Source of the DNA: Gigantopelta aegis
Lineage: Eukaryota; Mollusca; Gastropoda; Neomphalida; Peltospiridae
Assembly (NCBI RefSeq): GCF_016097555.1
Contig: NC_054712.1
Location: forward strand, 41,115,426 to 41,179,425
Direction of reading: 5' to 3'
DNA: 64,000 bases
The notes under the pieces are model-generated. The model did no database searches. It was not told the DNA's origin and worked only from the letters and a program-made list of their open reading frames with translations. A program made the position numbers and the translations under genes. This document shows positions 4,115 through 39,775 of this stretch, one piece after another (position 1 is the first letter of the stretch; each line of letters opens with the position of its first letter).

Positions 4115-4440
4115 TTGGGTACAAAAGGTCATGAAAGTTTAAAAGAACAATATTAAAACTATATTTCACTTTATGAAGAATAAATTCCAAAATATTCATT
4201 GATGACCTCTCGTCTTGTCCGAGGATTCACCTAATTAGCATATTACGAGCAGAATTCGCCTCTGAGATTACAGCACCGTGTTTTAAATATCCACCTGTTA
4301 AACAGTCATATGGTATAGAATCCGATTGTAATGTTCAATGGTAGTTTTATTCATAAATAAGTATTCTCTTGTGCGTGACGGTGAATGTGTAAATAGTATA
4401 AATACTGTGTACCTATCTTCACCGGCCATTACAGTTCTCA
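4115..4440 (+). promoter_or_regulatory. Promoter block of gene A
   Basis: A TATA box, TATAAATA, lies at 4397-4404, about 82 bp before the ATG. Upstream, 4115-4145 (with GTACAAAAGGTCATGA) and 4217-4280 (with GAGGATTCACCTAATTAGCA) are strongly conserved in front of genes B, D and E, and partly in front of C. Conservation that stops at gene-proximal sequence in duplicated copies fits shared control, although recent duplication alone could also explain it. The transcription start is probably about 30 bp after the TATA box; this is inferred, not seen. Confidence 0.7.
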
Positions 4441-4485
4441 GTTCAGTCTTCAGAATCCCGTCGTTCTAGTACAACAACAGTCAAC

Positions 4486-5790
4486 ATGAACGTAAGTTTT
4501 TCTAGTCACATTTTCCATGATATTAATCGAATTTTTTCCATGTTTTGCTAGCTTTGCTCGTTTTATGGAACTGTTTAAACGTTCTGTTTTAAGTAGACAT
4601 AGGATAGTGCGTAAGCGTTAAAGTGCGATCACACCTGTAGTATTCAACGTCAGAATATCTATAAACAGAACTTAATATTTTCTTTGTAGACTGCTCTGTC
4701 CACCGTTCTGTTCGCACTTGTGTGCTGCACTGCTCTCGCCTGGTACCCCACCTACACCTACGGACATGGTGCTGGTTACCAGGGAGTCGCTGGTCTCCAC
4801 GGAATCGGCGGTCTCCATGGAGCAGCTGGTCTCCACGGACTCGCTGGCTATGGTGGCCCCATTTACGGACATGCCGGATATGGTTACGGATACCCAGGCT
4901 ATGGTTACGGTGAGTTTAATATAATTTATTACTACTACTAACGAAATTATTCCCACTGTTAAGAGAAACACATACCCAATAAAAGTTTCAAGAAAAGTGG
5001 TCAGTGTAAACGTTTGGTAGCGATTTAACAGAAAAGGTCTATGTAATATGCATTATATGCATTATATATATGCACGTCTTTTCAAATGGGATTGTATATA
5101 TAATATAACATATATTTTTTAGTATAGTATAGTTTATAAGATTTAAGTTTCCATATGTGTTACGTTATCTGTTGGATATTTATACAAACTCATAATTTGA
5201 TTATAAAAAAAACTAATAGAAACATCTGTACTATTCACATCACAGCACAGCACAGCAAGACTCACTAGCATAACAGATCTTAACAAAAACGATCATAATG
5301 CGATGTCGTTGCGATGCGATGTATATTTGCCTTTGATCCACCACAGTCGTGCAAACATACACAAATTATTACTATCCTTTTGATTGACCCACACTCTTGA
5401 AAACAGACACATATTACTATTTTCCTTTGATCCACAACACTCATTAAAACAGACACATATTATTATTTTCCTGTGATCCACCACACTCGTCAAAACAGAC
5501 ACATATTACTATTTTCCTTTTAATCCACCAAACTAATGAAAATATACACATATTATAATTATTTTACCATATTATTCTTGATAGGATACGGACACGGTTA
5601 CGGACACGGACACGTGCTCGGAGCTGGACTTGGTTTCGCTGGACACGGACACGGACTCGGATTCGGAGCACGTGGACTTGGTCTAGGCGTCCGTGGACTT
5701 GGATTCGGCGCACGTGGACTTGGATTTGGAGGACGTGGATTTGGATTCGGAGGACGAGGACGGGGATACGGACACGCTCTGTACCACTGA
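4486..5790 (+). CDS. Gene A: secreted Gly/His/Tyr-rich protein, 143 aa
   Basis: Three coding exons: 4486-4491 (ATG AAC, then GTAAGT), 4690-4909 (after TTTGTAG, ends at GTGAGT) and 5585-5790 (after TAG, stop TGA). Phases fit (0, then 1), giving an intact 143-residue frame. Residues 1 to about 19 are a signal peptide with core LSTVLFALVCCTALA, so the product should be secreted. The mature part starts WYPTY, continues with LHG/GLHG and GYGYGYPGYGYG motifs, and ends in GLGFGARG/GFGGRG repeats and a terminal HALYH. There are no Cys residues after the signal peptide and no known catalytic motif. A polyadenylation signal, AATAAA, is at 5828-5833. The composition suits an extracellular structural protein (shell matrix, periostracum, egg capsule, adhesive); a Gly-rich antimicrobial peptide is a weaker option. 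Paralogous to genes B-E. Confidence 0.85.
5330..5545. repeat. About 54-bp intronic minisatellite, gene A intron 2
   Basis: About four units built around GATCCACCACACTCGT and ACAGACACATATTACTATTT. The same unit, inverted, occurs at about 12790-13110 in gene B intron 2. Single units lie near 31045-31085 (gene D) and 37775-37850 (gene E). The array therefore belongs to the ancestral intron and has changed copy number. Confidence 0.75.
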
Positions 5791-5899
5791 GGACTTGTCT
5801 CAAAGATTTAACAACACAATCTGTTTTAATAAATGTAAATATTTATTTAGTTATTCCAGTCTTCTGATGTTTGTGTTATATGTAAATGTGAATTAAATA

Positions 5900-36998: not shown

Positions 36999-37543
36999 CT
37001 GCTATGAGTCACAGGCGCTCATGAATCACTATCTAAACAGTGATGACATCAAGTGTTCGTAAAAGGTGAACATGTGTATACTACATCTGATGCTTCACGA
37101 ATAGTGTGTTTTTGTCTGTGGGTAAGTGTATAACAAAATAACAGTTGCTTACTGTGGAAGAAAGCGAGTTTCTTCTCTATCAATGAATATTGGATAGACG
37201 AAGCCATTACAGATGTTATTGAATGATTTCGATAAGAAACCTGCAGCCATCACAAACGCTGCTTATTTTGGTGCGTGTCAAAAGCTATTTGGTATGCAGC
37301 TTTGCCGCACAGACCAGGCAGCACATACCATGGCTTTTAGTTCACCCCTTATGGGATAATAATAACATCACTGGCAGTCTTCTGTTCAGACATGCCAGTG
37401 CAATATGTCAGTCGTTTATCAGTTAATATATATATATTCAATTTCTTTCCCCTAAGAACACAAACAACACGAGACTTGAATAACTAAATAATTATGTACA
37501 TTTATTAAAACAGTTTGTGTTGTTAAATCTTTGAGACAAGTCC

Positions 37544-39385
37544 TCAGTAGTACAGAGCGTGTCCGTATCCCAGTCCTCGTCCTCCGAATCCAAATCCACG
37601 TCCTCCAAATCCAAGTCCACGTGCGCCGAATCCAAGTCCACGGGCGCCTAGTCCAAGTCCATGTGCTCCGAATCCGAGTCCGTGTCCGTGTCCAGCGAAA
37701 CCAAGTCCAGCTCCGAGCCCGTGTCCGTGTCCGTATCCGAGTCCGTGTCCGTTTCCGTATCCTGTGAAAATAATATGCGTATGAGTGTGATCGATCAAAG
37801 TAAACTAATATGATGTGTATGTTTTCACGAATGTGGGTGGATCCAAAGAAAATCTACATAAACATTACGGTATCAGGCTCTAGCCCCCCACCCCCAATAA
37901 TTCTGAATAAAAAATATTGGTAGTAGATTTTACTTGAATTGAGGAAATTGCATTTGAAGATATCTAGTTTTAAAAATTGTACGGGGTAGCATACCCCCCG
38001 AACCCCCTAGAAACTTTGCTTTGTACCCTCGATCTCAATTAGCTTTAAGCTTTGCAGCAATTCAGTAATATCTGACAAATGGTTCATCATTATATGCAGG
38101 ATGGAAAGTTAAGTGCGTTGAAAACGTAAATATAATGCATTTTAAATATATTTTCAAATATTACTATTTTTTTTCTCTTCTTCTGTGCAAAATCGCTACC
38201 AAATTTGTACAGTGTCGTGAATTTCCATTAACACTGGCAACTTTGCTTTAAGCTTTTGGTAGGTACGCGCTTCTCTTATTACAGTGAGAATGGTTTCAGT
38301 AGGTAACAGTAATCAGTTCAACTGAACTCACCGTAACCATAACCTGGGTATCCGTAACCATATCCGGCATGTCCGTAAACGGGGCCACCATAGCCAGCGA
38401 GTCCGTGGATACCAGCGGCTCCATGGAGACCGCCGATTCCGTGGAGACCAGCGACTCCATGGTAATCAGCACCATGTCCGTAGTTGTAGGTGGGGTACCA
38501 GGCGAGAGCAGTGCAGCACACAAGTGCGAACAGAATGGTGGACAGGGCGGTCTGCGAATAAGAATAAAAAAAACACTTCTTAGTAAATATTTACATTTAT
38601 CCTGCAGTCACTGACCACACAATTACTTTTACCCCAAACATGTTGAGATTTCACTCTACAACGTAAACAAACTATTTAGGGTTAAAATATAATAATAAAC
38701 AAATAACTTGAGTAACAAGTCGATTAATATTAAATATGACAAATAAGAACTGTTTAGATATGTCATGTGGAATACTTTTGTTCTTGTGTATAAAAGAAAC
38801 ATTTTGATGATCTTAATAATTTCACGGGGCGGGACGTAGACCATTGGTAAAGAGCTCGCCTGATCGATCCCCGTCGCTGGCACCATTGGACTATTTTTCG
38901 TTCCAGTCAGTGCACCACGACTGGTACACTAAAAGCCGTAGTATTTGCTATCCTGTCTACTGCATGGTGCATATAAAATATTCCTTGCTACTAATGGAAA
39001 CATGTGGCGGTTTCCCTCTTTATATGTCAGAATTACCAATATTAGCCGATGATGAATAAATCAATGTGTTCTAGTGGTGTCGTTAAACAAACCAAACTTT
39101 AAAGTCTTTGATACTTCCACAATACAACTCAGTTGAATACTACAGGTTTGAATACTACAGGTGTGGATACTACAGGTGTGAACGCACCTTAACGCTTACG
39201 CACTATTGTGTTACTACATTAAACAGATGGTCATAATACTTTCACCTCAGCTGAATACTTCAAGTGTGAAGACACCTTAAGTTTTAAACAGTTCCATAAA
39301 AACAAGCAAAGCTAGTAAGACATGCAAACCAATTCATAATTCAAAGTACTCAACAGGACATTTAGCTAGGAAAACTCACGTTCAT
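37544..39385 (-). CDS. Gene E: secreted Gly/His/Tyr-rich protein, 147 aa
   Basis: Exons: 39385-39380 (Met-Asn, donor GTGAGT), 38551-38332 (acceptor TTCGCAG, donor GTGAGT) and 37761-37544 (acceptor TTCACAG, stop TGA). The intact frame encodes 147 residues. It differs from its paralogues by ADYHG for AGYHG, AAGIHG for AAGLHG, an added GNGHGLGYGHGHG stretch at the start of exon 3, and a C-terminus HALYY instead of HALYH. AATAAA is at 37506-37501; TATAAATA at 39478-39471. Intron 1 contains a degraded SINE (38825-39105). It lies convergent with gene D, as B does with A. Confidence 0.85.
37860..38300. other. Gene E intron 2 with repeat debris
   Basis: Holds one 54-bp minisatellite-like unit just 3' of exon 3 (37775-37850, mostly before this span) and a C-run stretch (TAGCCCCCCACCCCC), then GGGTAGCATACCCCCCGAAC, a dispersed-repeat look without defined ends. 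Confidence 0.4.
38825..39105 (+). mobile_element. tRNA-headed SINE with the second tail type, gene E intron 1
   Basis: The head GGGGCGGGACGTAGACCATT is the same tRNA type as at 91, partly deleted. The tail is different: TTAGCCGATGATGAATAAAT, CTAGTGGTGTCGTTAAACAA. The tail type matches 41203, 56525 and 58510. Confidence 0.75.
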
Positions 39386-39439
39386 GTTGACTGTTGTTAT
39401 ACTAGGACCACGGTATTCTGAAAACTGTTGACTGAAAAC

Positions 39440-39775
39440 TGTGATGACCAGTGAAGAGATAGACACACACTATTTATACTATTTACACACACACCGTCAC
39501 GCACAAGCAAATAATTATTGCTCAATAAAATCATCACTGGAATTTATAATCGGATTTTATGCGATATGACTGTTTAACAGGTGAACATTTAAAACATGGT
39601 GCTGTAATCTCAGAGGCGAATTCTGCTCGTAATATGCTAATTAGGTGAATCCTCGGACAAGACGAGAGGTCAGGTATGAACAAATTACAATTTATTCATC
39701 ATAAAGTGCACTTAAGTTTTAACATTGCACTTTTAAACTGTCCTGACCTTTTGTACCCAAAATACGGCGTTAAAT
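39440..39775 (-). promoter_or_regulatory. Promoter block of gene E
   Basis: TATAAATA at 39478-39471 (minus). Conserved blocks at about 39597-39663 (TGCTAATTAGGTGAATCCTC on the plus strand) and 39740-39770 (CCTGACCTTTTGTACCCA on the plus strand). Confidence 0.7.

What the first reader, a model, noticed from the sequence alone, without database searches (positions are those of the whole stretch)
4115..39775. Five-copy cluster of secreted Gly/His/Tyr-rich proteins with a two-codon first exon
Five paralogues share the same split: Met-Asn, then the signal peptide and a WYPTY/GYGYG segment, then GLGFGARG repeats. All frames and splice sites are intact. Orientation is +, -, -, +, -. I cannot name the family. 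A young, intact cluster of repeat-rich secreted proteins is a good candidate for a lineage-specific structural material such as shell, periostracum, egg case or adhesive.
Basis: partly seen in the sequence, partly recalled or inferred. Interest (0 to 1): 0.85.

Follow-up and report, generated by a model that had tools for sequence, protein, structure and literature searches.

The report
Vent-snail cluster of silk-like proteins
A snail genome, probably that of a deep-sea vent snail, carries a large cluster of genes for secreted silk-like proteins rich in glycine, histidine and tyrosine, whose coding parts stay nearly identical while the DNA around them has drifted apart; they look like building material for a hard or sticky secretion, but where and how they are used is untested.

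Summary
Five intact three-exon genes lie at 4486-39385 (orientation + - - + -), each with a 6-bp first coding exon (ATGAAC|GTRAGT), a TATA box 90-95 bp upstream and canonical splice sites. They are a slice of a larger array: 15 intact genes and 4 relics within 564 kb of one contig, with no convincing member elsewhere in the 1.149-Gb assembly. A mollusc hemocyanin domain and 15 chromosome-sized contigs fit the vent snail Gigantopelta aegis (inferred). Proteins are 137-426 aa, 39-44% Gly, rich in His and Tyr; exon 3 is a (Gly-X)n repeat of varying length.

'Young' is not supported: exon 2 differs by 2.5% on average, intron ends by 41-54%, and exon distances do not follow promoter distances. Gene conversion of exons is the best reading.

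The proteins meet the glycine criterion for silk-like structural proteins. They resemble squid histidine-rich beak proteins in composition, but the GHGxY motif is absent in 15 of 15, and the resemblance does not beat Gly-preserving shuffles. Best explanation: a secreted, disordered, self-associating structural protein, cross-linked outside the cell. Expression and tissue are untested.

The parts
4395..4404 (+). g1 TATA box
   Evidence: exact AGTATAAATA, one of five in the window
4486..4491 (+). g1 coding exon 1, Met-Asn
   Evidence: ATGAAC|GTAAGT
4690..4909 (+). g1 exon 2: signal-peptide-like stretch and Tyr/His-rich head
5585..5790 (+). g1 exon 3: (Gly-X)n tail and stop
5828..5833 (+). g1 AATAAA
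14981..14990 (-). g2 TATA box
14894..14899 (-). g2 coding exon 1, Met-Asn
13383..13602 (-). g2 exon 2
12583..12776 (-). g2 exon 3
25808..25817 (-). g3 TATA box
25717..25722 (-). g3 coding exon 1, Met-Asn
24725..24926 (-). g3 exon 2 (18 bp shorter than the other four)
23854..24059 (-). g3 exon 3
28549..28558 (+). g4 TATA box
28639..28644 (+). g4 coding exon 1, Met-Asn
30439..30658 (+). g4 exon 2
31101..31483 (+). g4 exon 3, with a 39-bp repeat in 6.6 copies at 31106-31362
39471..39480 (-). g5 TATA box
39380..39385 (-). g5 coding exon 1, Met-Asn
38332..38551 (-). g5 exon 2
37544..37761 (-). g5 exon 3

Best explanation
A clustered family of secreted, silk-like structural proteins in a gastropod, most likely Gigantopelta aegis. 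Each gene has its own conserved TATA promoter, and a short 5' exon donates Met-Asn. Exon 2 encodes the signal peptide and a fixed Tyr/His-rich head. Exon 3 encodes a (Gly-X)n tail whose length varies by gain and loss of His-type units (39 bp) and Arg-type units. After secretion the disordered chains would condense through Tyr, Phe, His and Arg side chains and then harden by oxidative cross-linking of Tyr and His, and/or metal binding by His, into a tough or adhesive extracellular material. Fifteen copies would supply dose, and gene conversion of the exons keeps the product uniform. Shown: gene anatomy, array size, composition, repeat variation, exon homogeneity against divergent flanks. Inferred: secretion, self-association, cross-linking, conversion as the cause, material role. 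Unknown: the tissue.
For: 15 intact genes with the same anatomy against 4 relics. Exon-2 dN/dS 0.17. Signal-like N-terminus with hydrophobic core and ALA|W. 44-49% Gly in the best 80-residue window in 15 of 15, far over the 25% used to define silk-like structural proteins (PMC4944945, passages). Gly at every second residue in exon 3. No fold predicted for one tail, mean pLDDT 38.5. Tail length 137-426 aa driven by repeat units. Exons near-identical while flanks diverge, with discordant distance matrices. Tyrosinase-domain genes exist in the genome.
Against: No transcript, protein or tissue evidence. No signal-peptide program was run. Low pLDDT is also what AlphaFold gives for any protein it cannot model. 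Tyrosinase genes are not next to the array. The key phase-separation motif of squid beak proteins, GHGxY, is absent in 15 of 15. Exon-tail dN/dS of 0.45 is only moderately low. Two pairs (L008/L009, L011/L013) share near-identical starts of intron 2, so homogeneity is not confined to exons in every pair.
Confidence: 0.6

Rival explanations
1. Glycine- and histidine-rich antimicrobial or immune effectors, expanded in a symbiont-bearing vent snail.
For: Secreted, cationic by Arg and His, multi-copy, rich in Gly; PMC7895826 reports enlarged sets of pattern-recognition receptors in G. aegis (passages).
Against: Only 4-13 Arg in 118-407 mature residues, no Lys, no Cys; long variable (Gly-X)n tails and homogenised exons suit a bulk material better. 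No test of activity was possible.
Confidence: 0.12
2. Metal- or sulfide-handling proteins: His-rich chains that bind vent metals in mucus or on surfaces, with no load-bearing role.
For: 9-13% His in the mature chain in 15 of 15; vents carry heavy metals (PMC5333402, passages).
Against: Gly-X regularity and Tyr/Phe/Arg content are not needed for binding alone; the species assignment itself is inferred.
Confidence: 0.15
3. Exon identity is due to selection on synonymous or RNA-level sequence, not gene conversion; the array is as old as its introns suggest and evolves independently copy by copy.
For: Identity falls steeply at exon borders (0.94-0.98 in exon 2, 0.29-0.33 beyond 20 bp into intron 1). 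Exon 2 has few variable sites, so the matrix comparison on it is weak.
Against: Exon-2 and exon-3-tail distances do not follow promoter distances (r -0.44 and -0.22) while introns do (r 0.52 and 0.48); Gly codons are mixed overall but almost fixed by column, so codon bias alone does not explain it.
Confidence: 0.25
4. Some copies are unmerged haplotypes or assembly duplicates.
For: Near-identical exons in a draft-derived assembly with 5216 contigs.
Against: Each locus has its own introns (intron 1 198-2629 bp, intron 2 209-2150 bp) and diverged promoters; alleles would be alike there.
Confidence: 0.04

Closest known systems
Silk-like structural proteins (SLSPs, the SilkSlider class of PMC4944945), which include pearl-oyster shematrins and KRMPs
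   Same: Secreted by sequence, glycine-rich well over the 25%-in-80 threshold, repetitive; lineage-specific expansion is common in the class.
   Different: A class by composition, not by descent. Here Gly alternates with His, Leu, Phe and Arg, with no Lys; homology to any named member could not be tested.
Squid histidine-rich beak proteins (HBP-1, HBP-2)
   Same: His/Gly/Tyr-rich repeats, GFAGHG-like stretches, a clustered family (10 genes in D. pealeii, PMC9068888, passages).
   Different: The GHGxY motif that drives phase separation in HBPs (PMC6884462, passages) is absent in 15 of 15; the match to peptide GY23 is no better than with Gly-preserving shuffles.
Spider major ampullate silk gene clusters (PMC9779670)
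   Same: Clustered Gly-rich structural genes with changes in repeat number and conversion between paralogues (passages).
   Different: No homology claimed. There, introns within a gene are homogenised; here the exons are homogeneous and the introns mostly diverge between genes.

Membership tests
Silk-like structural proteins (SLSP, SilkSlider definition) | At least 25% Gly in an 80-residue window of the mature protein | tested here: met
   0.44-0.49 in 15 of 15; definition from PMC4944945 passages
Silk-like structural proteins (SLSP, SilkSlider definition) | Signal peptide (by SignalP) | tested here: inconclusive
   Hydrophobic N-terminal core (12-residue mean 2.69-2.72) and ALA|W in 15 of 15; SignalP was not available
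Silk-like structural proteins (SLSP, SilkSlider definition) | No transmembrane helix in the mature protein (by TMHMM) | tested here: inconclusive
   Highest 19-residue hydropathy mean 0.86-1.24 in 15 of 15, low for a helix; TMHMM was not available
Silk-like structural proteins (SLSP, SilkSlider definition) | Part of a biological material | not testable with these tools
   No proteome or expression data
Squid histidine-rich beak proteins | Tandem GHGxY motifs | tested here: not met
   0 in 15 of 15
Squid histidine-rich beak proteins | Sequence similarity to HBP repeats beyond composition | tested here: not met
   GY23 against 8 of 15 proteins: 18-212 of 300 Gly-preserving shuffles reach the observed score; 0-29 of 300 plain shuffles do. 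Only a 23-residue peptide was compared, not full HBPs
Squid histidine-rich beak proteins | pH-triggered phase separation | not testable with these tools
   Needs purified protein
Shematrins | Homology to Pinctada shematrins and presence in shell | not testable with these tools
   No animal protein set to search; Pfam gave no match for the 2 of 15 proteins scanned

The most novel reading that the evidence does not exclude
An undescribed gastropod counterpart, evolved independently, of the squid beak proteins: a 15-gene array whose Gly-X, His- and Tyr-rich products phase-separate by pH-switched His, Tyr and Arg contacts as they meet vent or sea water, harden into periostracum, operculum or adhesive, and possibly bind vent metals, with the coding exons kept uniform by gene conversion while promoters and introns drift.
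Probability: 0.3. Interest if true: 0.7.

Novelty: new variant of a known kind. Interest (0 to 1): 0.5.

Why it matters
If expressed as proposed, this is a natural length series: one fixed head and one nearly fixed tail end with 0 to 10 pattern-recognised His units and 0 to 7 Arg units between them, all in one genome. It would allow chain length and His/Arg ratio to be tied to material properties, give a possible convergent case to squid beak proteins, and show how conversion keeps structural genes uniform. If it turns out to be an ordinary shell or mucus protein, it is still a clustered family that none of my searches found described.

Tried and rejected
Pfam (2 of 15 proteins), PDB sequences (1 of 15) and motif strings in papers gave nothing relevant; the only paper listed was on a Toxoplasma oocyst wall protein that shares a GYGYGYPGYGYG string, taken as low-complexity chance.

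Taxon through a repeat sequence in papers: no hit. A COX1 search did not complete; contig sizes and hemocyanin served instead.

Membership of the squid beak family: rejected on the missing GHGxY motif and the shuffles.

Physical linkage to tyrosinase: rejected; the run of matches on the same contig is about 32 Mb away, and some of the 27 tyrosinase-family matches lie in hemocyanin contigs.

A 46-bp intron-2 minisatellite as a shared driver of recombination: its core is in 5 of 15 genes only, dropped.

A weak exon-3 match on C13 (54% identity over 39 residues, one stop) was not counted as a member. One region of the distance table (end of intron 2) uses 94 of 105 pairs, the rest having under 50 aligned sites.

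Literature searches listed no paper that names this family; I saw listings with abstract starts, and passages of nine papers (with 56, 44, 45, 58, 59, 63, 67). No paper was read whole.
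Full report
Observation. The window holds five intact three-exon genes: g1 (+, 4486-5790), g2 (-, 14899-12583), g3 (-, 25722-23854), g4 (+, 28639-31483) and g5 (-, 39385-37544). Each diagnostic element (TATA box, ATGAAC with donor, exon-2 acceptor, exon-2 donor, exon-3 acceptor, stop context) occurs exactly five times, once per gene. Coding exon 1 is 6 bp, intron 1 is phase 0 and intron 2 phase 1. Products are 143, 139, 137, 202 and 147 aa. The stretch from about 300 bp upstream through exon 1 aligns between copies, least well in g3. This is far beyond chance.

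The whole array. The window is G000:C14:41115426-41179425 of a 1,149,253,464-bp assembly. An exon-2 search gives 17 matches, all on C14. A promoter search gives 19 pieces at 17 loci, all on C14. An exon-3 search gives 30 matches at 18 array loci plus one weak match with a stop on C13. The tool calls such counts lower bounds. Gene models on fetched stretches give ten more intact genes: L001, L003, L004, L006, L007, L008, L009, L010, L011 and L013, with 227, 426, 223, 145, 174, 296, 265, 139, 137 and 139 aa. Four loci are relics: L002 has exon 3 broken across frames and no clear acceptor; L005 has no exon 1 that I could find and its end is cut by a tandem repeat; L012 keeps promoter and exon 1 only within the 6.2 kb read; L016 keeps an exon-3 tail next to a CT repeat. 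So 15 of 19 loci are intact. They form two blocks, 15 loci in 41.027-41.155 Mb and 4 loci in 41.560-41.591 Mb. Apart from the window's own last 24 kb, the 400 kb between was not read.

Species. The mollusc hemocyanin domain PF14830 matches at 5 places. C1-C15 are 35-121 Mb each and sum to about 1,006 Mb; the ten other contigs that I measured are 5-199 kb, and the remaining 143 Mb is spread over 5,201 contigs. Gigantopelta aegis is reported with 1.15 Gb, 15 pseudo-chromosomes and 37.22% GC (PMC7895826, passages); the window has 35.9% GC. I infer G. aegis.

Proteins. All 15 begin MNTALST(V/I)LFALVCCTALAWYP, a signal-peptide-like stretch. Mature chains are 39-44% Gly, 9-13% His and 4-13% Tyr, with no Cys, Lys or Glu, 0-2 Asp and 4-13 Arg. 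Exon 3 alternates Gly with another residue: given Gly, Gly recurs two residues on with frequency 0.69-0.80 and one residue on with 0.01-0.09. Tail length depends on His-type units (GHGHGLGAGLGFA and variants, 0-10 by a simple pattern) and Arg-type units (GLGLGVRGLGL and variants, 0-7). In g4 the repeat is 39 bp in 6.6 copies. The C-terminus...GLGYGHALYH, is nearly fixed. AlphaFold2 on one exon-3 tail (L009, 189 aa, 7-row alignment) gives mean pLDDT 38.5, with 188 of 189 residues under 50: no fold is predicted, which fits disorder but does not prove it. Pfam (2 of 15 scanned) and PDB sequences (1 of 15) give no match.

Evolution. Mean pairwise difference among the 15 intact genes (105 pairs; 94 for the end of intron 2): exon 2 2.5%, exon-3 tail 6.4%, 3' UTR 13.9%, promoter with 5' UTR 16.5%, upstream promoter 28.3%, ends of introns 41-54%. 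Intron values include stretches that do not align well, so they are rough. Exon-2 dN is 0.011 and dS 0.066 (ratio 0.17); the exon-3 tail ratio is 0.45. Promoter distances correlate with intron-1 (r 0.52) and intron-2 starts (r 0.48; p 0.001 each) but not with exon 2 (r -0.44), exon-3 tail (r -0.22) or 3' UTR (r -0.27). Exon 2, exon-3 tail and 3' UTR correlate weakly with each other (r 0.26-0.34, p 0.085-0.094). Examples: g3 and L011 differ at 1 of 202 exon-2 sites but 125 of 322 promoter sites; g1 and L009 differ at 11 of 330 promoter sites but 19 of 135 exon-3-tail sites. Gly codons in exon 2 are mixed overall (entropy 1.53) but almost fixed per column (0.12). I read this as gene conversion of coding exons on an older array, together with purifying selection. 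Against it: exon 2 has few variable sites, so its matrix test is weak; the sharp fall of identity at exon borders fits constraint as well; and two pairs (L008/L009, L011/L013) share near-identical starts of intron 2, so exchange or recent duplication reaches introns there. Either way, 'young' does not follow from exon identity.

Mechanism. The head is Tyr/His-rich and fixed; the tail is Gly-X with His units, then Arg/Phe blocks. In squid beak peptides, His deprotonation and Tyr contacts drive phase separation (PMC6884462, passages), and hydrophobic GAGFA linkers favour gels (PMC10766971, passages). By analogy I expect condensation on secretion followed by oxidative or metal-mediated hardening. 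This step is inferred. Tyrosinase-domain genes exist, among them seven matches on C14 at 8.84-9.03 Mb, about 32 Mb from this array, so the chemistry is available but not linked.

Comparison. By composition the family meets the one SLSP criterion that I could compute as defined (15 of 15). It is not a squid HBP by motif: GHGxY is absent in 15 of 15. Similarity to GY23 beats plain shuffles (0-29 of 300 reach it, 8 of 15 proteins tested) but not shuffles that keep Gly in place (18-212 of 300). Squid HBPs are themselves a cluster of 10 genes in D. pealeii (PMC9068888, passages), so the parallel in gene organisation is real, but a parallel only. Conversion among clustered structural genes is known from spider silk (PMC9779670, passages).

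Limits. No transcripts, no other mollusc genome and no proteome could be searched. Tissue, expression, lineage range and material function are open. The paper library holds open-licence papers only; within it, searches listed nothing that describes this family.

Noticed in passing
55951-57022 (-): Two open stretches match the C-type lectin domain (PF00059, E 3e-9 for 55954-56178; the other, E 0.1, is below the cut-off); possibly two exons of one lectin gene.
   Followed up: partly
52366-53294 (+): Broken open frames with sub-threshold matches to Tc1-type transposase helix-turn-helix domains; looks like a DNA-transposon remnant.
   Followed up: partly
17403-18137 (-) and 42379-42609 (-): RNase H match (E 3.2e-6, over the cut-off) and a sub-threshold integrase-core match (E 0.004): retroelement fragments.
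   Followed up: no
20025-21752; also 16378-16572: 53-bp tandem repeat, 32.7 copies in the long array and 3.7 in the short one.
   Followed up: no
33867-35034: 57-bp tandem repeat, 20.7 copies, open in several frames.
   Followed up: no
9347-9676 and 13750-14073: Two near-identical stretches with open frames on both strands; no Pfam match for one minus-strand frame of each. Probably an unnamed repeat.
   Followed up: partly
L012:1001-2599 and parts of L005, L006, L010, L011, L013: Arrays spaced by about 31 bp with ATTATAAATA in each unit lie beside or inside several family loci; in L005 a repeat cuts off the end of exon 3.
   Followed up: no
G000:C14:8839219-9030110: Seven tyrosinase-domain matches within about 190 kb on the same contig as the array.
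   Followed up: no
356-409, 2698-2760, 2924-2975, 3952-4030, 30208-30287, 46935-46993: Copies of a short dispersed repeat, 86-94% identical to the copy at 3952-4030, one just upstream of g1.
   Followed up: no
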